Source of the DNA: Solirubrobacter pauli
Lineage (GTDB): Bacteria > Actinomycetota > Thermoleophilia > Solirubrobacterales > Solirubrobacteraceae
Assembly: GCF_003633755.1 (NCBI RefSeq)
Contig: NZ_RBIL01000001.1
Span: 481,426-545,425, forward strand
DNA length: 64,000 nt
Direction of reading: 5' to 3'
Shown: positions 30,437 through 42,059 of the stretch, piece after piece
How positions within the stretch are numbered: position 1 is the stretch's first letter
How the letters are laid out: every line of letters begins with the position of its first letter
Program-made: the position numbers and the translations under genes
Notes under the pieces: generated by a model
Databases searched by the model: none
Told to the model about the DNA's origin: nothing
The model's input: only the letters and a program-made list of their open reading frames with translations

Positions 30437-32878
30437 TTATCGCTTCAGCCGGCGCGCCTTCTCGACGTTGCCCCAGATGTCGACGGAGCCGTAGGTCGCC
30501 GACCTGCGCTGCTTGGCGGTGAGCTTGAGCGGCTTGCGGTACGCCCGCTTCTTGCCTCCGACGACCACGAACGTCGCCGCCACCTTGGACGCGTCCTTGG
30601 CCTTGAGCACGAGCTTGCCGTCGCGCCACGTGGCGGTCGTCTTCGGCGGCTTGCCGTCCTTGGTGGCCGGCTTGAGCGCCTTGCCGCCCTTGCCGGTCAC
30701 CGCGCCGGAGCCGCCGAGCGCGATCGCGGTCGCGCCCACGTAGCGGCGCTCCGCGCCCGCGCCCTTGTCGCCGAGGTCGCGCACGACCGCCGTGCCGCCG
30801 GCGGGCAGCTCGACGCGGACGTCGCTGCCGCCCGTGGCGACGATCTTCACCGCCCCGCCGAGCTCGATCACCTGCACGAGGTCCGCCCGCTCGGCCTCGG
30901 CGAGCGAGTAGGTACGTCCGCGCACGACCACCTTGGGCTCCTTCGTGCCCGCCTGCGCGGCGGTGACCATCGGGATCAACTGGTCCGGGTGGTAGACGGT
31001 CACCTCGCGCGCCGTCCACGGGCAGTCGTCGGCGATGTCGATCATCGGCTCGTTGCGGATCAGGAAGCGATCCATCAGCCGCGTGGTCTGGACGTCAGCG
31101 GTGATCGGCACGTGCTCGACGCCGCAGACGACGTGCAGGCGGTCCCGCGGGGTGTCGTGCGCGGCCGAGAACTGCGGCACGGTCTTGTCGCCGCTCACCC
31201 AGCTCACGCTGAGGTCGTCGATGATGCCGTAGTTGATGGCCACCGAGCCGATGGTCGGCACGCCGCCGCCGACGATCACGTGGTAGTCGACGCCGTTGTC
31301 CTCGAAGTGGTCCAGGACGCGCCCGTGCTGGGCGGCGGCGCGCGTGTACATGCCCGGGTCGACCTGGATCCGGCGTAGGTACTCGCGCACGCCGTCCATG
31401 TCCAGCGGCCGGTTGCCGTTCATGCCGCCGACGCTCAGCCAGGAGCCGTAGCCGAACGCCGGCATCAGCGAGAAGTGGCCGGGGAACGACCGCGCGGAGC
31501 GCTTGAGCCCGGTGCTCGTCATCAGGATGTCCATGGCCGAGAACCACGGCACCTCGATGCCCGCCGCGAGCGGCAGGATCACCTTGGGCGAGCCCCAGTA
31601 CGGCGTGCCGACCGTCACGGCGCGCGAGACCTTCGCGGCGTACGCGGGGTTGTCGATGTAGTGGCGCATCACGAGGCCGCCCATCGAGTGGCCGACGAGC
31701 ACCACGCGCTTGACGCCGTGCTCACGCCGCGCCTTCTCGACCAGGTCGTCGAGCCCGGCGACCGCGGTCGTCGGGTCCTTGCGCCAGTCCCACACGTAGT
31801 CGTAGTGCCGGCCGGGCCAGGTGATCTCCTCGAAGTGACGCGAGGCGCCGCCGTAGATGTCCGCGCCCGCGACGTCCATCACGAGCCCGTCGACCGACGC
31901 GTTCTGCGAGCAGCTGGTGCCGCCGTCGACACCCTCGCGGAGGTTCTCGCCGTCGGCGCCGAGCCGCATGTTCATGAGGTCCGGGCCGCCGGCCGGGTTG
32001 AACCACATCAGCTTGCCGGGGCACACGATCCGCGAGCCGCCGTAGCCGTGCGAGAAGATCACCACCGGCCGTGCGACGCCGAAGTCGACCTCGTGGTGCG
32101 AGCCCGTGCGCGCCGGGATGCCAGTGCTCCGGCACGTCTCCGGCGCGGTGCAGTCGGCGCCCGGGAGGCGCTCGAGGACGACGGGCGGCAGCGTCCCGCC
32201 GCCCCGCATGTAGCGCGTCGGCACCGGCAGGCTCCACGTGCCGAGCCGGTTGGTGCGGTACGCGGCGGTCTCGCCCTCGTCGAGCTGTCCGTTGTCGTTG
32301 TCGTCGAGGAAGACGCGCAGGCCGTCCGCGCCCTCCTCGCCGGCGTCGCGGCGGCCGTCCTCGTCCTGGTCGTCCCAGATCGTGCCGCGCAGGCCCATGG
32401 TGCCGATCACCGGGAACTGCACGTCGGTGCTCTGCAGGCCCGCTTCGACGGTGACCTCGCGCTGGCATCCCGGCGCGGGCTCCAGGCACTGCAGGTCGAA
32501 CTGGCTCGCGCGGGAGCCGAGGTCGGGGCCGTAGCGCACGCGGACGGTGGTCTCCCCCGCGGCCATCCGCCGCGTGTCCACCGGGAGCTCGTAGTGGCCG
32601 TCGCCGTCGACGGCCACCATCGTCTCGCGTTCCTGGCGCGCCCCGTCGCGGTTGTAGTCGGCGAACACCCAGCCACCGATCGGGTAGCGCGCGTCCTCGT
32701 CGCCGGCGTCGAAGCGGCCGTCGGCGTCGTAGTCGAACCACACCTGGCCGGAGACGGGGGCGACCGCCGGGTCGTTGAGGCACGGGTCGTCCGCGGCGGC
32801 GGCGCAGGCCGCGCCGGCCGGGGCGGCGTACGCCACCAGCGCCGCGGCCACGCTCATCATCAGCACGAGCCGCTTCAT
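30437..32878 (-). CDS. Secreted lipase-like alpha/beta hydrolase with SdrD-type B domains
   Basis: An 813-residue exported enzyme. A signal peptide (LMMSVAAALVAYAAPAGA) precedes two Ca-binding-type B repeats (VWFDYDADGRFDAGDEDARY; GTIWDDQDEDGRRDAGEEGA and DDNDNGQLDEGE), rich in Asp as in SdrD B-like adhesin domains. The catalytic domain resembles lecithin:cholesterol acyltransferase-type lipases: FSHGYGG oxyanion loop, DYVWDWRKDP, nucleophile VGHSMGGLV and VGTPYWGSPK. A basic, beta-rich C-terminal domain follows. AGGGAG is 8 bases before the ATG, and the ATG overlaps the upstream stop codon by 4 bases. Probable role: cleavage of lipid esters outside the cell. Confidence 0.85.
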   Translation of the reverse strand: MKRLVLMMSVAAALVAYAAPAGAACAAAADDPCLNDPAVAPVSGQVWFDYDADGRFDAGDEDARYPIGGWVFADYNRDGARQERETMVAVDGDGHYELPVDTRRMAAGETTVRVRYGPDLGSRASQFDLQCLEPAPGCQREVTVEAGLQSTDVQFPVIGTMGLRGTIWDDQDEDGRRDAGEEGADGLRVFLDDNDNGQLDEGETAAYRTNRLGTWSLPVPTRYMRGGGTLPPVVLERLPGADCTAPETCRSTGIPARTGSHHEVDFGVARPVVIFSHGYGGSRIVCPGKLMWFNPAGGPDLMNMRLGADGENLREGVDGGTSCSQNASVDGLVMDVAGADIYGGASRHFEEITWPGRHYDYVWDWRKDPTTAVAGLDDLVEKARREHGVKRVVLVGHSMGGLVMRHYIDNPAYAAKVSRAVTVGTPYWGSPKVILPLAAGIEVPWFSAMDILMTSTGLKRSARSFPGHFSLMPAFGYGSWLSVGGMNGNRPLDMDGVREYLRRIQVDPGMYTRAAAQHGRVLDHFEDNGVDYHVIVGGGVPTIGSVAINYGIIDDLSVSWVSGDKTVPQFSAAHDTPRDRLHVVCGVEHVPITADVQTTRLMDRFLIRNEPMIDIADDCPWTAREVTVYHPDQLIPMVTAAQAGTKEPKVVVRGRTYSLAEAERADLVQVIELGGAVKIVATGGSDVRVELPAGGTAVVRDLGDKGAGAERRYVGATAIALGGSGAVTGKGGKALKPATKDGKPPKTTATWRDGKLVLKAKDASKVAATFVVVGGKKRAYRKPLKLTAKQRRSATYGSVDIWGNVEKARRLKR

Positions 32879-35800
32879 CGCCGGGCTCCCTTCTTCGCCT
32901 TGGGGGTACAGGTGCGGAACCTGCGGCTCTGCTTGACGACCTTGCCGGTCTTCAAGGTCGCCGCGATCTTCACGGTGAAGCGGCCCTTCGGCAGCCCGCG
33001 GAGGTCCACGGCGGCGGTGATGCGCTTGCCGCGCAGCGTCTTGACCGCCTTGCCGTTCACCCACACCGCGACCTGCGTGTAGTCGCCCTTCGCGACCCGG
33101 ATGCGGAAGTGGCGACGGCTCACGCAGCCCTTGGAGGACGGCAGCGTGAACACGTCGGCGGCCTTCGGCGTCGTGTCGGCGGCGGCCCGCGTGATCGCTT
33201 CGACCGTCCGCGGGTCCAGCGGCTTCGTGCCCGTGCGGGACACGCGCGGCGGCTGGGGCACCTCCGGGTCGAGCGGCTTGGGCTCGACGACCGGCTCGTC
33301 GGGGCGGGCCGTCACGTCCACGGTGACGGTCGCGACGCCCGAGCGGCTCGCGCCGTCGCTGACGCGGTAGCTGAACGTGACGGGGCCGATCACGTCCGTC
33401 GCGGTGTAGGTGACGTCGGGCGCGCTGGGCTCGACCGACGACTCGCGCAGCTGCAGCGAGCCGCGTGCGGGCTGGTCGACGATCTCGTAGGCCAGCCGCT
33501 CCTCCTCCGGGTCGGTCGCGGGGAGCGCGATGTCGACGGACTCGCCGGCGACGACCGTGGCGGTCGCGTCGGCGGCCGCGGGTGCGCCGTTGGCGGGCGC
33601 GACCACGCGCCGTGCCTCGGCGGCGTCGGAGCCGCCGTCGCGGTCGACGACCTCGACGCGCGCGGTCGTCGCGCCGCCCGTGCGGCTCGTGGCGAGCGTG
33701 TACCCGTCGCCCGTGGCGATCAGCGGCACGGCCTCACCCGTGATCGACCCGTTCCAGAACACCTTTGCCTCCAGCTCGTCCGCGCTGCCGGAGTCGGCGA
33801 TCCGCGCCGACAGGTTCGCGGGCTCGCCGTCGCCGAGCTCGGCCTGCAGGATCTCCGGCGCGGCGTTGGCCACCTTCACCTCAGCGGACGCCGTCGCGGT
33901 GCGGCCCTTCGCGTCGGTCACGAGCACGCTGACGGGGTAGGTGCCCTCGTCCGGGAACGTGCTCTTGGGCTTCGCGCCCGTGGCGTCGGTGAAGACGCCG
34001 TCGCCGTCGAGGTCCCACGCGTACGCGGTGATCGGGGCGTCGTCGGCGCCGGGCGTGGACGCGCTCGCGTCGAGCACGAGCTCGAGGCCCTCGCTGCCGC
34101 TCACAGCGGCCACGGCGGCGTTCGGGTCGCGCTGCTCGAGCGTCGGCTCGGGGTCCGGCGCGGTGCCGCGCAGGGGCTGGACGTCCGGCTCCTCGAAGGA
34201 CCGGTTGCCCGGCTTGGCGTCCATGATCTTCTCCGCGCCGGTGCCGTCCGGGCGGATCTTCCAGATGTCGGTCGAGCCGAAGCCGGTGGAGCCGCCGCGG
34301 TCGCGGTTGGACGCCCACACGATCCACTCGCCGGTCGGCGACCAGGTCGGATACGCGTTGTAGCCGCCGAACTGACCGTTAGTGAGGTTGCGCTCGGTGC
34401 CCGTCTGCAGGTCGTAGACGATCACGTCGAGGATGCTCGGGCCCTTGGCCGGATAGCGGGTGACGACGCCGTAGCGCCCGTCCGGCGACATCGCCAGGCA
34501 GTCCTTGCCGGTGATGCTCTGCGGGAGGTAGGCGCCCTGGGTGCCGTCGGCGCGGTAGAGCTCGAACGCAGGCGTGCTGTTCCAGCGCACGAGCGCGCGC
34601 GAGCCGTCCCGCGTGAACCCGCACAGCTGTCCGTAGCGAGCGCCGAACCGGCCCTGCTCGGCGCCCGTCTCGGCGTCGATGACGGTGTTGCCGTCGTTGG
34701 TCATGTTCGTGCGCCGCATCGCGACGAGCTTGTCGCCGTCGGGCATCCACACCGGGAGCAGGAAGTCGCCCGTCGCGCCGGCGTTGGTGAGCTGGCGGGC
34801 GCCGCTGCCGTCGGCGTTGGCGACGAACACCTCGTCGTGGCGCCAGGCGAGCTTGCGGCCGTCCGGCGACCAGCGCGGCTCGTTGCCGGAGGTGCTGACG
34901 CGCTTGAGGCTCGAGCCGTCGAGGTTGGCCGTGACGACGCCGCCGAACCAGTCCTCGGCGACGACCAGGCCGTCGGTCAGCTGCCCGCCGATCACGAACG
35001 AGCCGGACTCCGCCGTGGCGGTGTTCCAACCGTCGGTCGTCGTGACCCGCACGCGCACGTCCTGGCCGCCGATGGTCACGATCGCCTTGACCGCCAGCTC
35101 CTCGGCCGTGGTCGCGTCGCCCAGCGAGCGCCAGGACGCGCCGCCGTCGGTCGAGATCGACACCTGCGACGTGAGCGTGTCACCGTCGGCGTCGTCGGCG
35201 TTCCACGTGACCTTGAGGGTCTCGCCGAGCTCGACGCGCGCGGGCGTGGCGACCGTCAGCGTCGGCGCGTTGGCCGAGCGCGTGCGGGTGACGAGCACGT
35301 CGTCGCCCTTGCGCACCCGCAGCGACCGCGCGCTCTCCGGGGCCGGCACCTGCAGCGAGAACGCGGCGGTGGCGGTCTTGATGTGGGTGTCCTTGGTGGC
35401 CGCGGCGTTGCCGATCGGCCCGAGCTCGTCGACCGCGTCGAAGCGGGTGCTGCCGACGACCGCGCCGCCCTGGCCGAGCAGCTCGAACGTGTACTCGCCC
35501 TGGGGCGTGGTCGCGTCGGGCGTGCCCTCGCCGAGCACCGCCGGGCCGAGCTGGACGTCGCCGGCCGGGGACACCGAGCCGGTCAGCGACAGCACGTCAC
35601 CGGCGGCCGCGACGCCGAGGATCTCGCCCGTCGACAGCTCCTCGGTGAGGAAGTCCCAGGTCGCCTTCGAGGTCCAGCGGCCGGTCGGGCTCGCGACGTC
35701 GCCGCCGCTGGTGTTGAAGTGCATGAAGTCACGCGTCGAGGCCGCGACGTCCCGCCGCTCGGCGACCCAGAAGCCGGGCGCCGGCTCGTCGTTGAGGTGG

Positions 35801-37974
35801 TGCTTGGTCGTCTCGTCCTCGGTCCAGCCGTAGGAGTGCGCGAGCTCGTGGGCGACGATCCAGCCACCCGTGTTCTGACGCTCGACGAGGCCCGCGTCGA
35901 ACCCGCCGCCGTTGGGCGCGATGCCGACGGCCTGCTGGAAGCCCTCGATCTGCTGCCGCGAGAACCAGCCCTGCGGGACGACGCCGATCACCTTGTCGAT
36001 CTCGGGGTCATTCCACTTCAGGCGATCCAGCCGGTGCATCAGCTGGCCGGGCCCCATCAGGGTCGGCTCGGTGAGCGGCGGGGCGTGGACCAGCCGCGAC
36101 GCGCAGTCGGTGACGACCGTGAACCTGTCGGGATCGACCGGCCAGCCGGCCTCGATGAAGCGCTCGGCGCCCTCGGCGACGTCCTGCACGTCACGGCAGG
36201 CGGGGAAGGCCTCGTCGTCGGCCGCGACCGGGACGAACAGCACCTTCAGCGCGCGCGGTTGCACGACCGCCTTCGAGCCCTCACCTGTGTTGTTGTCCGG
36301 GTTCGTGTCGGCGCTGCGCGCGTTGAGCGTGACCTTCGCCGTGACGCGGCCCGCGCCGACCTCGATCGGGTCGCGCGCCAGCAGCTGGACCGGGTTCAGG
36401 CCCGGCCGCAGCACGACGTCCTCCTCGAGCGTGCGCTCGACGCGGCGGCCGTCCGCGTCGTCGTAGGCCAGCTCGACCTTCGCTCGGGCGGACGTGCGCT
36501 CGGCGCCCAGCGAGCGGACCATCACGCGCACCGTCGTCGGCCGTCCGGCGGCCAGGCGCGCGGCGTCTTGGGCGGCCTGGTGCGGACGCACCGAGATGAG
36601 CTCGAGGTCCGGCGCGGCCGCGCTCATCGGCGCGAACAGCACGTTGGGGTCGTCGTGGGTCCAGGTCTCGCCCCACTTCCACCACGCGAAGCCGGCGCCC
36701 TGCGGGTCCGGTCCCCACGCCGCGGCGACCGGCTGCAGGTCCTTGCCCGGCGAGGCGTCGACGGTGCGGAGCTGGAAGGTCTGGCCGCGGTCGGACGAGA
36801 ACGCCGCGACCGGGTCCAGGTCGAAGCCGTCGGGGTTCGGAGCGCTGTGCCAGACGGCGACGACCGAGTCGCCGTGCGCGTCCACGTACGGGTGGCTCTG
36901 GGTGTGCCAGGTGTACAGGTACGGGCCGAGCACCTGCGGGCCGCCGAAGCCGGCGCCGCCGTTCGTGCTCCGCGCGATGTACATGTTGCCCTGCGCGCGC
37001 CACGTCACGTAGACGCGGTCGTCGTCGACGTCGAGGCCGTACGGGGCCGAGCAGTAGTCGCCGACGCAACGGGCGCCGCTGAGGACGTGCTCGCCCCACG
37101 ACGCGCCGCCGTCCCCCGACGTCACGACCAGCGGCTCGGCACCGAAGTCCTTGCCGGAGCCGTCCTCGCGGTCCCACGAGGAGCGCTTGCTGATCGCGAC
37201 GGCGACGGTCCCGTCGGCCGCGGCGATCGTCGGGCTCCCCGGGTGGAGCGTCCAGCTGCCGTCGTGGACCTGCTGCATCGGCTCGATCGAGCGGCCGCCG
37301 TCGACCGAGCGGCGCACGTACACGTCGGCGCCGGAGCTCAGCCACGTCCAGTAGACGTGGTCGCCGTCGAGGGCGAGCGAGAAGTCGCTGCCGCGGTCGC
37401 CGGGATCGTTGACCTGGGCGAAGCACGGGAACGTCTTCGCGCCGTCGCGGCTGCCCGCCGTCCAGATCCGGCTCGTGTTGTCGGTGTACGCGACGAACAC
37501 GTTGTCGCCGTCGGCGGCGAGCTTGAGGTCCCACGCGCCGTGACCGGTCGGACGCCCCGCGCGGACGGGCGGCGCGAACGTGCGTCCGCCGTCGTGGCTG
37601 GCGGCGACGACCGCGTGGCGCTCGCTCTGCCAGAACGAGCCCTGGATCCAGCCGACGTAGACGTCGTCGCCGTCGACGGCGATCTTCGGGTCCTCGACCG
37701 ACACCGTGCCCGGCCCTTGCAGGCCGTGCGAGCCGCCGATCTCGGTGCCGGTGGCGGAGATGCGGTTGATGGAGACGCCCTGGCGCTCCTCCGCATAGAC
37801 GACGAAGGTCGTGTTGCCGTCGGTCGCGATCGCCGGCGCCCAGGTGCGGGACGCGGGCGTGTCGGACAGCAGCGACGCCTCGCCCACCGCGGGCGAGCGC
37901 AGGTCGGCGGAGGCCGTGGCGGGGATCAGCGCGAGAGCGAGGAGCGCGAGGAGAAGGGCCCGGAAGCGGTGCAT
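32875..37974 (-). CDS. Giant secreted multidomain protein with metallopeptidase-like and propeller domains
   Basis: A 1,699-residue exported protein. After a signal peptide (ALLLALLALALIPATASA) come, in order: an N-terminal BNR/sialidase-type propeller with repeated SHDGGRTF, SRDGAKTF and SVDGGRSI blades (to about residue 440), a CARDB-like adhesion domain, a segment with HELAHSYGWTED that fits an HExxH zinc peptidase, another Ig-like domain, a TolB-like PD40 propeller (EPRWSPDGRKLAW), a PKD domain (YAWDLDGDGVF), a cadherin-like domain, and a basic C-terminal domain. ATG at 37974; a GTG at 38007 is the alternative. Overlaps the lipase-like gene as ATGA. Likely a surface or exoenzyme factor, activity untested. 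Confidence 0.82.
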   Translation of the reverse strand: MHRFRALLLALLALALIPATASADLRSPAVGEASLLSDTPASRTWAPAIATDGNTTFVVYAEERQGVSINRISATGTEIGGSHGLQGPGTVSVEDPKIAVDGDDVYVGWIQGSFWQSERHAVVAASHDGGRTFAPPVRAGRPTGHGAWDLKLAADGDNVFVAYTDNTSRIWTAGSRDGAKTFPCFAQVNDPGDRGSDFSLALDGDHVYWTWLSSGADVYVRRSVDGGRSIEPMQQVHDGSWTLHPGSPTIAAADGTVAVAISKRSSWDREDGSGKDFGAEPLVVTSGDGGASWGEHVLSGARCVGDYCSAPYGLDVDDDRVYVTWRAQGNMYIARSTNGGAGFGGPQVLGPYLYTWHTQSHPYVDAHGDSVVAVWHSAPNPDGFDLDPVAAFSSDRGQTFQLRTVDASPGKDLQPVAAAWGPDPQGAGFAWWKWGETWTHDDPNVLFAPMSAAAPDLELISVRPHQAAQDAARLAAGRPTTVRVMVRSLGAERTSARAKVELAYDDADGRRVERTLEEDVVLRPGLNPVQLLARDPIEVGAGRVTAKVTLNARSADTNPDNNTGEGSKAVVQPRALKVLFVPVAADDEAFPACRDVQDVAEGAERFIEAGWPVDPDRFTVVTDCASRLVHAPPLTEPTLMGPGQLMHRLDRLKWNDPEIDKVIGVVPQGWFSRQQIEGFQQAVGIAPNGGGFDAGLVERQNTGGWIVAHELAHSYGWTEDETTKHHLNDEPAPGFWVAERRDVAASTRDFMHFNTSGGDVASPTGRWTSKATWDFLTEELSTGEILGVAAAGDVLSLTGSVSPAGDVQLGPAVLGEGTPDATTPQGEYTFELLGQGGAVVGSTRFDAVDELGPIGNAAATKDTHIKTATAAFSLQVPAPESARSLRVRKGDDVLVTRTRSANAPTLTVATPARVELGETLKVTWNADDADGDTLTSQVSISTDGGASWRSLGDATTAEELAVKAIVTIGGQDVRVRVTTTDGWNTATAESGSFVIGGQLTDGLVVAEDWFGGVVTANLDGSSLKRVSTSGNEPRWSPDGRKLAWRHDEVFVANADGSGARQLTNAGATGDFLLPVWMPDGDKLVAMRRTNMTNDGNTVIDAETGAEQGRFGARYGQLCGFTRDGSRALVRWNSTPAFELYRADGTQGAYLPQSITGKDCLAMSPDGRYGVVTRYPAKGPSILDVIVYDLQTGTERNLTNGQFGGYNAYPTWSPTGEWIVWASNRDRGGSTGFGSTDIWKIRPDGTGAEKIMDAKPGNRSFEEPDVQPLRGTAPDPEPTLEQRDPNAAVAAVSGSEGLELVLDASASTPGADDAPITAYAWDLDGDGVFTDATGAKPKSTFPDEGTYPVSVLVTDAKGRTATASAEVKVANAAPEILQAELGDGEPANLSARIADSGSADELEAKVFWNGSITGEAVPLIATGDGYTLATSRTGGATTARVEVVDRDGGSDAAEARRVVAPANGAPAAADATATVVAGESVDIALPATDPEEERLAYEIVDQPARGSLQLRESSVEPSAPDVTYTATDVIGPVTFSYRVSDGASRSGVATVTVDVTARPDEPVVEPKPLDPEVPQPPRVSRTGTKPLDPRTVEAITRAAADTTPKAADVFTLPSSKGCVSRRHFRIRVAKGDYTQVAVWVNGKAVKTLRGKRITAAVDLRGLPKGRFTVKIAATLKTGKVVKQSRRFRTCTPKAKKGARR

Positions 37975-38020
37975 TGGGGCGGCACTCTGCGTACGCGGGA
38001 TTGCCACGAGTTTGCACGGG

Positions 38021-38068: not shown

Positions 38069-39487
38069 ATGACCTCCCCGGAACGCACACGCTGGGCCGC
38101 CCTGTACGTGCTCTGCGCGGGCACGCTCATGATCGTCCTGGACGCCACGATCGTGAACGTCGCCCTTCCCTCCATCCAGGACGACCTCGGGTTCTCGGCG
38201 AGCTCGCTCGCATGGGTCGTCAACGCCTACCTGATCGCCTTCGGCGGCCTGCTCCTGCTGGCCGGCCGCGCGGGTGACCTGCTCGGGCAGCGGAACGTCT
38301 TCCTCGCCGGGCTCGTCCTGTTCACCGCCGCTTCAGTCGCCTGCGCGGTCGCGCAGACGCAGTCGATGCTGATCGCCGCGCGCTTCGTCCAGGGCGCCGG
38401 CGGCGCGCTCACCTCCGCGGTCGTCCTCGGGATGATCGTGACCATGTTCCCGACGCCCCGCGAGCAGGCGAAGGCGCTCGGCGTCTATGGCTTCGTCGCT
38501 TCCGCCGGCGGGTCGATCGGCCTCCTGGCCGGCGGCGTGCTCACGGACGCGCTCGACTGGCACTGGATCTTCTTCATCAACGCTCCGATCGGCGTGGCGA
38601 CCGGCGTGCTCGCGCTGCGGCTGGTCCCGTCGTCGTCCGGGCTCGGGCTGCGCGGCGGCGCCGACCTGCCGGGCGCGGCGCTGCTGACCGGTGGCGTGAT
38701 GCTCGGCGTCTACACCATCCTCGGCGTGACCGAGCACGGCTGGCTCGCCGGTCGCACGCTGCTGCTCGGCGCGGTCTCCGCGGTCGCGCTCGGCGCCTTC
38801 CTCGTGCGCCAGACGCGCGTGGCGACGCCGCTGATGCCACTGCGGTTGTTCCGCTCGCGGGACGTGAGCGGCGCGAACGTCGTGATGGCGCTGATGGTCG
38901 TCGGCATGTTCAGCCTGTTCTTCCTCGGCGCGCTCTACCTGCAGCTCGTGCTGGGCTACGACCCGCTGGCCGTCGGCCTCGCGTTCCTGCCCTCCACGCT
39001 GGTGATGGGCGCGACGTCGCTGAAGCTCTCGCAGCGGTTCGCCCCGCGGGCCATCCTCGCGCCCAGCATGCTGTTCGTGCTGGCGGGCCTGTTGCTGTTC
39101 TCCCGCACGCCGGTGGACGGCACCTTCGCCGTCGACGTGCTGCCGGCCACGATCCTGATCGGCCTGGGCGCCGGTCTGTCGATGCCCGCGATCATGACGC
39201 TCGCGATGTCCGGCGTCGCGCCCGAGGACACCGGGCTGGCCTCCGGGCTGATCAACACCACCGTGCAGGTCGGCGGCGCGATCGGCCTGGCCGTCCTGGC
39301 GACGCTCGCCGCCGGGCGCACGGGCGCGTCGACCGCACCCGCGGACCTGCTCGCCGGCTACCACCTCGCGTTCCTGATCGGCGCGGGCGTCCTGGCCGCC
39401 GCGACCGTGGTCGCCGTGTGGCTGACGCGTCCCTCAGTCCTGCAGGTACTCCGCGTCCGAGACGTGCTCGCCCCAGATCGCGTCTGA
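38069..39487 (+). CDS. MFS drug:proton antiporter, DHA2 (EmrB/QacA) family
   Basis: A 472-residue inner-membrane transporter with about 14 hydrophobic segments, the DHA2 number. The N-terminal motif D1 region LDATIVNVALPSIQDDLGFS and the loop motif A LLAGRAGDLLGQRNVF are clear. Motif C-like GSIGLLAGGVLTDALDWHW marks it as an antiporter. Substrates of relatives are diverse antimicrobials and metabolites. ATG start at 38069. The 3' end overlaps the convergent cupin gene by 54 bases. The dyad upstream suggests regulation by an unlinked repressor. Confidence 0.92.
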   Translation: MTSPERTRWAALYVLCAGTLMIVLDATIVNVALPSIQDDLGFSASSLAWVVNAYLIAFGGLLLLAGRAGDLLGQRNVFLAGLVLFTAASVACAVAQTQSMLIAARFVQGAGGALTSAVVLGMIVTMFPTPREQAKALGVYGFVASAGGSIGLLAGGVLTDALDWHWIFFINAPIGVATGVLALRLVPSSSGLGLRGGADLPGAALLTGGVMLGVYTILGVTEHGWLAGRTLLLGAVSAVALGAFLVRQTRVATPLMPLRLFRSRDVSGANVVMALMVVGMFSLFFLGALYLQLVLGYDPLAVGLAFLPSTLVMGATSLKLSQRFAPRAILAPSMLFVLAGLLLFSRTPVDGTFAVDVLPATILIGLGAGLSMPAIMTLAMSGVAPEDTGLASGLINTTVQVGGAIGLAVLATLAAGRTGASTAPADLLAGYHLAFLIGAGVLAAATVVAVWLTRPSVLQVLRVRDVLAPDRV

Positions 39488-39826
39488 CCCGTCGTCGGCG
39501 ATCTCCTGCATCGCCAGATGGGTCATGAAGTTCGCTGAATCGGCACCGTGCCAGTGCTCTTCCCCGGGCTCGAAGTGCACGGTATCGCCGGCCCGGATGG
39601 GCTCCACGTTCCCCCCTCGCGACTGAGCGAGGCCGGAGCCCTCGGTCACGTGGATCGTCTGGCCGAACGGATGTTTGTGCCAGGCGGTCCGCGCTCCGGG
39701 CGCGAAGTGGACGCTCAGGAGCTTCACGTGCGGGCCGGTGGAGATCGGGTCGATCCACACCTCCCCCGTGAACCAGTCGGGGTTGCCGCGCTGCGTCGCG
39801 TGCTGACGGGGACGGATGACCTCCAT
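39434..39826 (-). CDS. Small cupin-domain protein
   Basis: A 130-residue single-domain cupin. The metal ligands are visible: WHKHPFGQTIHVTEGSG supplies the two His and the later Glu region of motif 1, and FEPGEEHWHGA forms motif 2. Similar small cupins accompany mandelonitrile lyase-like and carboxymuconolactone decarboxylase-like activities, but function is not settled. The ATG at 39826 is 8 bases after TAGGGT, which overlaps the stop codon of the upstream sigma factor gene; thus it may have its own leaderless transcript. Convergent overlap with the MFS gene at the 3' end. Confidence 0.85.
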   Translation of the reverse strand: MEVIRPRQHATQRGNPDWFTGEVWIDPISTGPHVKLLSVHFAPGARTAWHKHPFGQTIHVTEGSGLAQSRGGNVEPIRAGDTVHFEPGEEHWHGADSANFMTHLAMQEIADDGSDAIWGEHVSDAEYLQD

Positions 39827-39837
39827 GGGCCGGGACC

Positions 39838-41334
39838 CTACCCGTCGTCGTCGGCGCCCTCGCCCTTGTCCTGCTTCTTGGCCTGGCCGGGCGGCTCGCC
39901 CTCCCGCTTGGCCTGACCGGGCGGCTCGGCGTCCTTCTTGGCCTGGCCCGGCGGGTCGGCCTTCGGCGTCACCACCGCCGTGGGTGCCGGCGTCGTCTCG
40001 CTCGTGGGCGCCTTGTCCGGCTTCTGCGGCTTGGCCTTGTCGGGCTTCGACCGCCCCGGGGGCTGCTTCTTGGGCTTCGCCTGCCCGGGTGGGGTGTCCG
40101 GCGGGCCGCGCCGCTCCGACTGCTCCGGCTTGGTCTTCGGCTCCTTCTCGGGCTTGGCCTTCTCCGGCTTGTCGGGCTTGGCCTCCTTGCCGGGCGGAGT
40201 CCCGCGCGGCGCCGGGTCCGAGGCCTGCTCGCGCTCGCCCTGCCGCGTCTCGGCCGGCGGGTCCTGCACGGCCGGGGAGATGACCGGCGTGCGGCGGCGC
40301 TTGGCCGCCGTGCGCTTCGTCGGCTTGTCCTTCTTGGCCGTCGCCGGCGTGTTCTCGGTGCTCGTGCGCACGGCGCCGGGCGTCGCGGTCGGCGTGGCCG
40401 TCGTGGTCGACGTCGGCGTGGGCGTCGTGGTCGCGGCCGCCGGCCGGTCGGGCGCCTGCCGCGGCGTGGTCGGCGGAGCCTCGGCCGCTGCCCGCGGCGG
40501 CGGCTTGTAGAACTCGACCGCCGCGACGGTCGCGCCGCCACCGGCGATCGCCACGCAGGCCAGCAGCTTGGCCGCGCCGCCACCGCCGAGGATCTGGGCG
40601 AGGAGCGCGGCGGCGCCCGCGGTGGGCAGCGGCGGGGCGAGCATCGCGAGCCGCTTGGAGCGCTGGTCGATGTCGGTCTGGAAGCGTCGGCAGCCCGCGC
40701 ACGAGCGCAGGTGGGCGCGCACGCCGCGCCCGCGCAGCACGCGGCCGTCGCCGTCCGAGAGCATCCGGCGGACGTCGTCGCAGGGCATCTCACGCCCCTC
40801 CCGCGCGCTGAACAGCGCGCTGCGGGCTTCGTAGATCGTCTGCTTGACGTTCGCGGCGGACGTCTCGAGCACGACCGCGATCTCCGCGTGCGAGAGCCCG
40901 TTGAGCTCGCGCAGCACGAGCGCCGCGCGCTGGCGGTCCGGCAGGTCGGCGAGGTCCATCTGCAGCAGCCGCAGCTCCTCGCGCTCGCTCACGCGGTCCT
41001 CGAGGTCCGCCGGGATCGGGATGTCGTCCAGCTCGGTGGTCGTCCGCCGCTTGCGCAGGATGGAAATCGCTTCGTTGTGGGCGATGCGGAACAGCCACGG
41101 CCGCAGCTCGAAGTCGCGCTGCTCGTCCTGCAGCGCCGCGAACGCGCGGGTCATCGTGCTCTGCAGCGCGTCCTGCGCGTCCTCCTCGTGGCGCAGGATC
41201 GAGCGGCAGTACCGGTAGAGGTCCTGATGATGGCGCTCGTAGACCGCCGCGAAGGCCGCAGCATCGCCACGCGCGGCGCGCGAGCGCAGGGTGCTCTCGC
41301 GGCGAAGGCGCAGGTTCGCAGGCACGGCGGTCAT
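39838..41334 (-). CDS. ECF sigma factor fused to ZAS anti-sigma domain, membrane helix and Pro/Lys-rich tail
   Basis: A 498-residue protein. Residues 28-96 are sigma region 2 (HHQDLYRYCRSILRHEEDAQ; RPWLFRIAHNEAISILRKRR) and 124-177 sigma region 4 (LSHAEIAVVLETSAANVKQT). Residues 185-215 then carry the zinc-type anti-sigma signature: Cys185 and an exact H-x3-C-x2-C at His208, Cys212, Cys215. One membrane helix (254-276) follows, then about 220 residues of Pro/Lys/Thr-rich sequence predicted outside the cell. The anti-sigma module that usually is a separate partner is therefore in cis, tethering the sigma factor to the membrane. ATG at 41334; a GTG at 41343 is possible. Confidence 0.88.
   Translation of the reverse strand: MTAVPANLRLRRESTLRSRAARGDAAAFAAVYERHHQDLYRYCRSILRHEEDAQDALQSTMTRAFAALQDEQRDFELRPWLFRIAHNEAISILRKRRTTTELDDIPIPADLEDRVSEREELRLLQMDLADLPDRQRAALVLRELNGLSHAEIAVVLETSAANVKQTIYEARSALFSAREGREMPCDDVRRMLSDGDGRVLRGRGVRAHLRSCAGCRRFQTDIDQRSKRLAMLAPPLPTAGAAALLAQILGGGGAAKLLACVAIAGGGATVAAVEFYKPPPRAAAEAPPTTPRQAPDRPAAATTTPTPTSTTTATPTATPGAVRTSTENTPATAKKDKPTKRTAAKRRRTPVISPAVQDPPAETRQGEREQASDPAPRGTPPGKEAKPDKPEKAKPEKEPKTKPEQSERRGPPDTPPGQAKPKKQPPGRSKPDKAKPQKPDKAPTSETTPAPTAVVTPKADPPGQAKKDAEPPGQAKREGEPPGQAKKQDKGEGADDDG
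39871..39960 (-). repeat. Three 30-bp tandem repeats encoding PPGQAK units
   Basis: Three copies of a 30-bp unit (the block CTTGGCCTG at 39877 recurs at 39907 and 39937, the second with one change) encode successive PPGQAK-containing decapeptides at the extracytoplasmic end of the fused sigma factor. Copy number could vary between strains. Confidence 0.75.
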
Positions 41335-41365: not shown

Positions 41366-41397
41366 AAAGGTCAGGAACAAATTCCTACCCGACCTTT
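41366..41397. promoter_or_regulatory. Nested inverted repeats between the fused sigma gene and HTH-ClpN gene
   Basis: Outer arms AAAGGTC (41366-41372) and GACCTTT (41391-41397) enclose inner arms AGGAA (41373-41377) and TTCCT (41382-41386). The block fills the middle of the 89-bp divergent region. It also contains GGAAC, a common ECF -35 element, but I could not pair it with a -10 at standard distance. Confidence 0.5.
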
Positions 41398-41423
41398 CCT
41401 GTCTCTGCGCGTTGACTGGACAA

Positions 41424-42059
41424 ATGGCCCCATACAACCCCCAAAAAACGTTGTCTCTGCTCGAGAAGACGCTCACGGCGGACCCCACCGCCAGCCTGCG
41501 CGCCCTGACGGCCCTCCGGGCCGAGCTGGACGTGCTGGAGCGGCATCTCGTCGGGCGGGCGCTGCAGGAGGGACAGACGTACACGCAGATCGCGCGTCCG
41601 CTCGGCATCTCCCGCCAGGCGGCCCACCGCCGATACCGCGACCTCACTTCACCGCCGCGGCTCTCCGAGGTCGCGCGCGCGACGCTCGTGCGGGCACGCG
41701 AGGAAGCCGCCCGGCACGGCTCGCGCAGCATCGACGGCGAGCACCTCGTGCTGGCCCTCGCGCGGGCGGGCGCGCTGTCGATCGACGTCGAGGCCGCGCG
41801 CCGCAGCTTCGCCCCGCCGGCGATGAACGCGCCCGCTCCGGCCGGGCTGCATCCTGCGCTCCACGCGCGGCTCGTGCGCAACTCGGGCGAGCTCGGCCTC
41901 GAGCAGCTCGTGAAGGCCACGCTCGAGGACGCCGGCGCGCGCCGGCTGCTGGAGCAGTTCGGCCGCGGTTCAGTCCACCAGCTTGTTGACCGTCGCCCAG
42001 TTGCGAACGGTCGCGGTGCCGGCGAGCCCCGGTTTGCCGAGGGCCTTCATCAGGCGTGA
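41424..42059 (+). CDS. Helix-turn-helix protein with Clp N-terminal-like domain
   Basis: A 211-residue protein. Residues about 49-72 are a sigma-region-4-like helix-turn-helix (TYTQIARPLGISRQAAHRRY). Residues about 82-180 resemble a Clp N domain: ATLVRAREEAARHGSRSI followed by DGEHLVLALARAG, then a second helical repeat (LGLEQLVKATLEDAGARRLL). In ClpA/ClpC this fold binds adaptor or substrate proteins, so a regulator that senses proteins is conceivable; no ATPase is present. The ATG at 41424 is preferred over an upstream TTG. The last 30 codons overlap the convergent DUF1697 gene and look non-native. Divergent from the fused sigma gene. Confidence 0.75.
   Translation: MAPYNPQKTLSLLEKTLTADPTASLRALTALRAELDVLERHLVGRALQEGQTYTQIARPLGISRQAAHRRYRDLTSPPRLSEVARATLVRAREEAARHGSRSIDGEHLVLALARAGALSIDVEAARRSFAPPAMNAPAPAGLHPALHARLVRNSGELGLEQLVKATLEDAGARRLLEQFGRGSVHQLVDRRPVANGRGAGEPRFAEGLHQA

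What the first reader, a model, noticed from the sequence alone, without database searches (positions are those of the whole stretch)
39838..41334. Sigma factor and zinc anti-sigma domain in one membrane-anchored polypeptide
After a complete ECF sigma factor the same chain carries an exact H-x3-C-x2-C zinc motif with an upstream Cys, one membrane helix and 220 residues of Pro/Lys-rich sequence outside. Sigma activity would be held at the membrane in cis and would need proteolysis or a conformational switch to act. Normally these are two proteins. The long tail with PPGQAK repeats may sense or bind the cell wall.
Basis: partly seen in the sequence, partly recalled or inferred. Interest (0 to 1): 0.65.

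Follow-up and report, generated by a model that had tools for sequence, protein, structure and literature searches.

The report
Self-inhibited membrane-linked sigma factor fusion
A soil bacterium (genus Solirubrobacter) joins a gene-switching sigma factor and its own zinc-containing inhibitor into one probably membrane-tethered protein; the arrangement is real and standard in its whole bacterial order, but fusions of this kind, and the proposed release by cutting, are already described in other bacteria.

Summary
On the minus strand, 41334..39838 is one 498-residue frame: complete ECF sigma factor (residues 32-174), zinc anti-sigma domain (C185, H208-x3-C212-x2-C215), weak hydrophobic segment (~254-273), and a 221-residue Pro/Lys-rich tail with four PPGQAK copies. 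It is not a frameshift: all 7 genomes searched in the genus have a one-frame relative (6 close, one more diverged), and all 41 sampled genomes of the order (28 genera) have at least one homolog whose match covers sigma and zinc domain with no stop inside; the window genome has at least 8. The four zinc ligands are invariant in 49 aligned homologs. Outside the order, none of the recovered best matches is fused, and about a third have a separate HxxxCxxC gene overlapping or just downstream, so the fusion looks like a merged sigma/anti-sigma pair. The helix and membrane segment is under purifying selection; the tail is close to neutral. Best mechanism: inhibition in cis at the membrane, released by proteolysis or a conformational switch (inferred). 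This idea is published for ECF48/52/53 and demonstrated for the different fusion IutY. The membrane segment is weak, and the cell-wall role of the tail is untested. Verdict: new member of a known kind; group assignment not testable here.

The parts
39838..41334 (-). Whole gene: ECF sigma - zinc anti-sigma domain - hydrophobic segment - Pro/Lys-rich tail, 498 aa, one frame
   Evidence: relatives in all 7 genus genomes
41044..41241 (-). Sigma-70 region 2 (residues 32-97)
   Evidence: Pfam PF04542 E 1.5e-14; fold of sigma-E region 2, rmsd 1.3 A
40813..40953 (-). Sigma-70 region 4 (residues 128-174)
   Evidence: Pfam PF08281 E 7e-14
40639..40782 (-). Zinc anti-sigma domain (residues 185-232); ligands C185, H208, C212, C215
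   Evidence: invariant in 49 homologs; Pfam zf-HC2 in 16 of 49 members at E<0.01; best solved sequence match is anti-sigma RsiW, weak E 0.07; helices confidently predicted
40588..40623 (-). Predicted helix 238-249 just before the membrane segment; candidate fourth anti-sigma helix (inference)
   Evidence: purifying selection over 237-277
40516..40575 (-). Weak, conserved hydrophobic segment (residues 254-273), putative single membrane helix
   Evidence: not modelled with confidence
39841..40503 (-). Pro/Lys-rich, probably disordered tail (residues 278-498)
   Evidence: dN/dS 0.66-1.26 with the frame kept, GC3 0.97
40075..40092 (-). PPGQAK copy 1 (residues 415-420)
39937..39954 (-). PPGQAK copy 2 (residues 461-466)
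39907..39924 (-). PPGQAK copy 3 (residues 471-476)
39877..39894 (-). PPGQAK copy 4 (residues 481-486)
41388..41414 (-). Conserved upstream element CAACGC-N12-RRGGTYGGG; candidate ECF-type promoter, perhaps autoregulatory (inference)
   Evidence: alignment of orthologs; in front of this gene in 6 of 7 genus genomes and almost nowhere else
39434..39826 (-). Small cupin protein about 12 bases downstream, probable same operon
   Evidence: Pfam Cupin_2; same spacing in S. phytolaccae and S. taibaiensis

Best explanation
A self-contained ECF sigma/anti-sigma system made by joining two neighbouring genes. The N-terminal ECF sigma factor is held inactive in cis by the zinc-coordinated class I anti-sigma domain directly behind region 4. 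A weak single membrane helix places this pair at the membrane and the Pro/Lys-rich tail outside. A signal acting on the tail or membrane segment triggers cutting (a site-1-like cut, then a site-2 intramembrane protease) or a shape change that frees a soluble sigma fragment, which then transcribes its targets, probably including its own gene. Shown here by sequence: the fusion, its conservation, the invariant zinc ligands, the selection pattern, and separate two-gene counterparts outside the order. Inferred: inhibition, topology, proteolysis, the signal and autoregulation.
For: All 7 genus genomes have a one-frame relative. All 41 order genomes have a homolog matching across sigma and zinc domain without stops, and all 29 recovered have HxxxCxxC in the same frame. 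C185/H208/C212/C215 are invariant in 49 homologs. zf-HC2 is found in 16 of 49 members at E<0.01, and the top solved match is anti-sigma RsiW, though weak. Outside the order, none of 28 best matches is fused and 10 have an HxxxCxxC frame overlapping or adjacent. Helix+TM 237-277 is conserved (dN/dS 0.05-0.41). Own-genome paralog L007 ends in a bacterial SH3 domain, as expected of an outside sensor. Three site-2-protease-family genes exist, but such genes are found in all 14 control genomes. Published precedents: ECF52 (PMC5826349), ECF48/53 (PMC8999054), IutY (PMC5411451).
Against: The hydrophobic segment is marginal and has low AlphaFold confidence. The tail is net positive in the genus, which the positive-inside rule disfavours outside. 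The linker between region 4 and C185 is short, so in-cis docking is not guaranteed and inhibition could be in trans; the model does not fix the domain arrangement (pTM 0.55). A fold search with the zinc domain alone was inconclusive. Nothing shows zinc binding, inhibition or cleavage.
Confidence: 0.68

Rival explanations
1. The hydrophobic segment does not span the membrane: the protein is a soluble, zinc- and redox-regulated sigma factor, and the basic tail works in the cytoplasm (binding nucleic acid, RNA polymerase or a partner). Release is by zinc loss or oxidation of the cluster.
For: Weak Ala/Gly-rich segment; AlphaFold does not build it confidently; Lys-rich tail with net charge +8 to +23 in the close orthologs. 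Among soluble class I anti-sigma domains about 72% carry the zinc motif (PMC7406223).
Against: The segment is about as conserved as the sigma domain and far more hydrophobic than any sigma-domain stretch. A segment of similar strength recurs after the zinc domain in homologs whose tails have other charges. A paralog ends in an SH3 domain.
Confidence: 0.2
2. The fused form is itself active at the membrane, with no fragment released; the zinc domain is a structural leftover and the tail only anchors the protein.
For: In SCO4117 (ECF52), a strain making only the sigma domain was less affected than the full knockout but still delayed in development (PMC5826349), so removing the extension does not simply give an always-on factor.
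Against: Strict conservation of all four zinc ligands argues for a kept function. The fused protein IutY is released by Prc and RseP (PMC5411451).
Confidence: 0.07
3. Assembly or frameshift artefact joining two genes.
For: Outside the order, several nearest relatives have an in-frame stop between sigma and zinc domain.
Against: One frame in relatives from all 7 genus genomes and in homologs across the order; uniform codon use along the gene, GC3 0.94-0.97.
Confidence: 0.01

Closest known systems
ECF52 sigma factors (SCO4117 of Streptomyces coelicolor)
   Same: ECF sigma domain, zinc finger, membrane segment and Pro-rich extension in one protein; actinobacterial; proteolytic release proposed (PMC5826349). 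A likely ECF52 protein found here (L104, 622 aa) has the same order of parts.
   Different: ECF52 ends in a carbohydrate-binding NPCBM domain; this tail has no recognised domain. No detectable BLASTP similarity between the two proteins, and the ECF52 row falls outside the main Solirubrobacterales fused clade on a long branch, placement unsure.
ECF48 and ECF53 groups
   Same: Described as actinobacterial ECFs with C-terminal zinc finger and one or two membrane helices, expected to be activated by proteolysis (PMC8999054).
IutY of Pseudomonas putida (ECF243)
   Same: Sigma and membrane anti-sigma factor in one chain; experimentally released by Prc and RseP (PMC5411451, PMC8999054).
   Different: Iron cell-surface-signalling anti-sigma with a periplasmic anti-sigma domain, not a zinc domain; Gram-negative, works with an outer-membrane receptor.
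SigW-RsiW of Bacillus subtilis
   Same: Zinc-type anti-sigma factor; best sequence match to the zinc domain among solved structures, weak.
   Different: Two separate proteins.

Membership tests
ECF sigma factor (sigma-70 family) | Regions 2 and 4 present, no region 3 | tested here: met
   Pfam r2 and r4 over cut-off; TIGR02937 E 1.2e-22, over cut-off
Class I zinc anti-sigma domain | Hx3Cx2C motif spanning helices 2 and 3, with an upstream fourth ligand | tested here: met
   Invariant C185, H208, C212, C215; the motif bridges helices 203-211 and 213-232; definition from PMC7406223
Class I zinc anti-sigma domain | Pfam zf-HC2 over its curated cut-off | tested here: inconclusive
   Window domain 20.4 bits against 22.2; 16 of 49 homologs at E<0.01
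Class I zinc anti-sigma domain | Fold match to solved anti-sigma domains | tested here: inconclusive
   Foldseek and VIA-align gave no meaningful match for the small helical domain
Class I zinc anti-sigma domain | Binds and inhibits the sigma factor | not testable with these tools
   needs experiment
ECF52 | Sigma + zinc finger + membrane segment + Pro-rich extension | tested here: met
   membrane segment marginal
ECF52 | C-terminal carbohydrate-binding (NPCBM) domain | tested here: not met
   No Pfam domain in the tail; the ECF52-like control is detected with E 3e-27
ECF52 | Sequence kinship of the sigma domain with ECF52 | tested here: inconclusive
   No significant BLASTP match; tree placement of ECF52 on a long branch is unsure
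ECF48 / ECF53 | Match to the group models | not testable with these tools
   ECF group models are not in the libraries; the reclassification paper is not held
Fused sigma/anti-sigma released by proteolysis (IutY type) | Regulated cleavage frees the sigma domain | not testable with these tools
   Three M50 protease-family matches in the genome, which is uninformative alone

The most novel reading that the evidence does not exclude
An order-wide, multiply duplicated family of one-protein ECF systems (at least 8 in this genome) that arose by a gene fusion separate from ECF52, with the same inhibited core and freely changing outer tails (Lys/Pro repeats, SH3 domain, others), each serving as a different sensor.
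Probability: 0.5. Interest if true: 0.45.

Novelty: new member of a known kind. Interest (0 to 1): 0.27.

Why it matters
If the model holds, Solirubrobacterales run much of their envelope signalling through one-protein systems in which inhibitor and sigma factor cannot be separated by diffusion or cross-talk. That offers a natural set of self-inhibited sigma switches with interchangeable outer sensors, and a way to test how anti-sigma domains work in cis. For this single gene the layout and proposed mechanism were already published for proteins of the same kind.

Tried and rejected
Frameshift or assembly join: rejected. ECF52 membership: NPCBM domain absent and no BLASTP similarity; kinship left open. 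Fold search of the zinc domain alone: no useful match. Whole-model fold search: matches each sigma region well, but not the domain arrangement. Cis docking could not be read off: no contact data, pTM 0.55. Searches at family level and among near relatives failed for technical reasons; genus, order and phylum searches worked. PPGQAK as a general secreted linker: rejected, it occurs only in this gene in the genome. A regulon search with the upstream element found essentially only this gene. First tree labels missed some fused rows and were corrected; one origin of the fusion among the fused rows is not rejected (AU p 0.847). The test joining ECF52 with this clade did not finish. No paper on such proteins in Solirubrobacterales was found.

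Full report
Observation. The finding lies on the minus strand, 41334 to 39838, as one uninterrupted 498-residue frame. Sigma regions 2 and 4 are complete. They are followed directly by C185 and H208-x3-C212-x2-C215, a hydrophobic stretch around 254-273 and a 221-residue tail rich in Pro (21%) and Lys (13%) with four exact PPGQAK copies.

Not an artefact. The window belongs to a Solirubrobacter-like genome; the first 275 residues are 94% identical to S. phytolaccae, 91% to S. taibaiensis and 77% to S. soli. All 7 genomes of the genus, the window's own included, carry a relative in one frame; six are close orthologs and the seventh (L029, 64% over the sigma/zinc part) is more diverged and lacks the shared neighbourhood. 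Codon use is uniform along the gene (GC3 0.94-0.97).

Distribution. All 41 genomes sampled from the order, in 28 genera, have matches reaching from the sigma domain through the zinc domain with no stop inside. All 29 of the order loci fetched have HxxxCxxC in the same frame, with a Cys 23 or 24 residues upstream. The window's own genome has at least eight such proteins (L001-L007, L012). Across 49 aligned homologs the invariant columns are five sigma residues and the four zinc ligands. In the 80-residue zinc alignment the only invariant columns are the four ligands.

Origin. In a sample of 60 genomes of the phylum, the best matches outside the order are ordinary sigma genes, several with an in-frame stop just before the zinc domain. 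Of 28 loci examined, none has the zinc motif in the sigma frame; 10 have an HxxxCxxC frame overlapping or just downstream. That is what a fused sigma/anti-sigma pair would look like before fusion. A single origin of the fusion is not rejected (AU p 0.847).

Zinc domain. Pfam zf-HC2 hits the domain just below cut-off (20.4 against 22.2 bits) and hits 16 of 49 homologs at E<0.01. The top sequence match among solved structures is anti-sigma RsiW, weak at E 0.07. AlphaFold gives confident helices at 185-194, 203-211, 213-232 and a less certain one at 238-249. The motif bridges the second and third major helices, as described for class I anti-sigma domains (PMC7406223). A fold search of this small domain was inconclusive.

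Membrane segment and tail. The segment scores 1.86 on Kyte-Doolittle over 19 residues and about +1.3 kcal/mol on an insertion scale whose coefficients I supplied from memory, against +4.7 for the best sigma-domain stretch. Similar weak segments recur in the homologs; the ECF52-like control scores -0.3. AlphaFold has low confidence there. Against four orthologs, residues 237-277 have dN/dS 0.05-0.41, similar to the sigma domain at 0.09-0.26, while the tail has 0.66-1.26. So the segment is kept and the tail drifts, although every ortholog keeps at least one PPGQAK-like copy. Paralog tails differ: L007 ends in a bacterial SH3 domain over the Pfam cut-off.

Upstream element. CAACGC-N12-RRGGTYGGG precedes the gene in six of seven genus genomes, and only one other exact match occurs in those genomes. 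It could be an autoregulated ECF promoter or an operator for the divergent HTH gene; this is inference.

Mechanism. The best-supported reading is inhibition of the sigma factor in cis by the zinc domain at the membrane, with release by proteolysis or a conformational switch. The arrangement and conservation are shown; inhibition, topology, cleavage and signal are inferred. Cis docking is not demonstrated: the linker is short and the model's domain arrangement is uncertain.

Known background. The same layout is described for ECF48, ECF52 and ECF53, and proteolytic release is the published expectation (PMC8999054). SCO4117 is the characterised ECF52 member (PMC5826349). IutY, a fusion with a different anti-sigma type, is released by Prc and RseP (PMC5411451). 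A likely ECF52 protein recovered here (L104) has the same order of parts plus the NPCBM domain, but no BLASTP similarity to this protein. The protein is therefore a member of the known kind 'ECF fused to a zinc anti-sigma and membrane segment', with ECF group undetermined.

Noticed in passing
41412-42059 (+): Divergent gene with a helix-turn-helix and a Clp_N-like part (both below Pfam cut-offs), conserved opposite the sigma fusion in the close orthologs; may share the intergenic regulatory element.
   Followed up: partly
41366-41397: Inverted repeat AAAGGTC...AGGAATTTGTTCCT...GACCTTT in the shared intergenic region; its centre is present only in this genome and S. phytolaccae among the aligned orthologs.
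   Followed up: partly
39434-39826 (-): Small cupin gene about 12 bases downstream; same spacing in two species, but in S. soli two other frames lie between. Weak similarity to the ChrR cupin model, below cut-off.
   Followed up: partly
L007:1042-2463 (-): Own-genome paralog: sigma + zinc motif + hydrophobic segment ending in a bacterial SH3 domain.
   Followed up: partly
L006:1423-3685 (+): A fused sigma/zinc paralog followed about 28 bases later by a second ECF sigma gene with its own long C-terminal extension and no HxxxCxxC.
   Followed up: no
L041:1411-3411 (+), L012:1381-3234 (+): Other fused homologs with long tails scoring as a GA module (L041) and an apolipoprotein-like helical repeat (L012, below cut-off).
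   Followed up: no
32875-38007 (-): Very large (1710 aa) probable secreted protein, with a 1722-aa open frame on the opposite strand that is probably a high-GC artefact.
   Followed up: no
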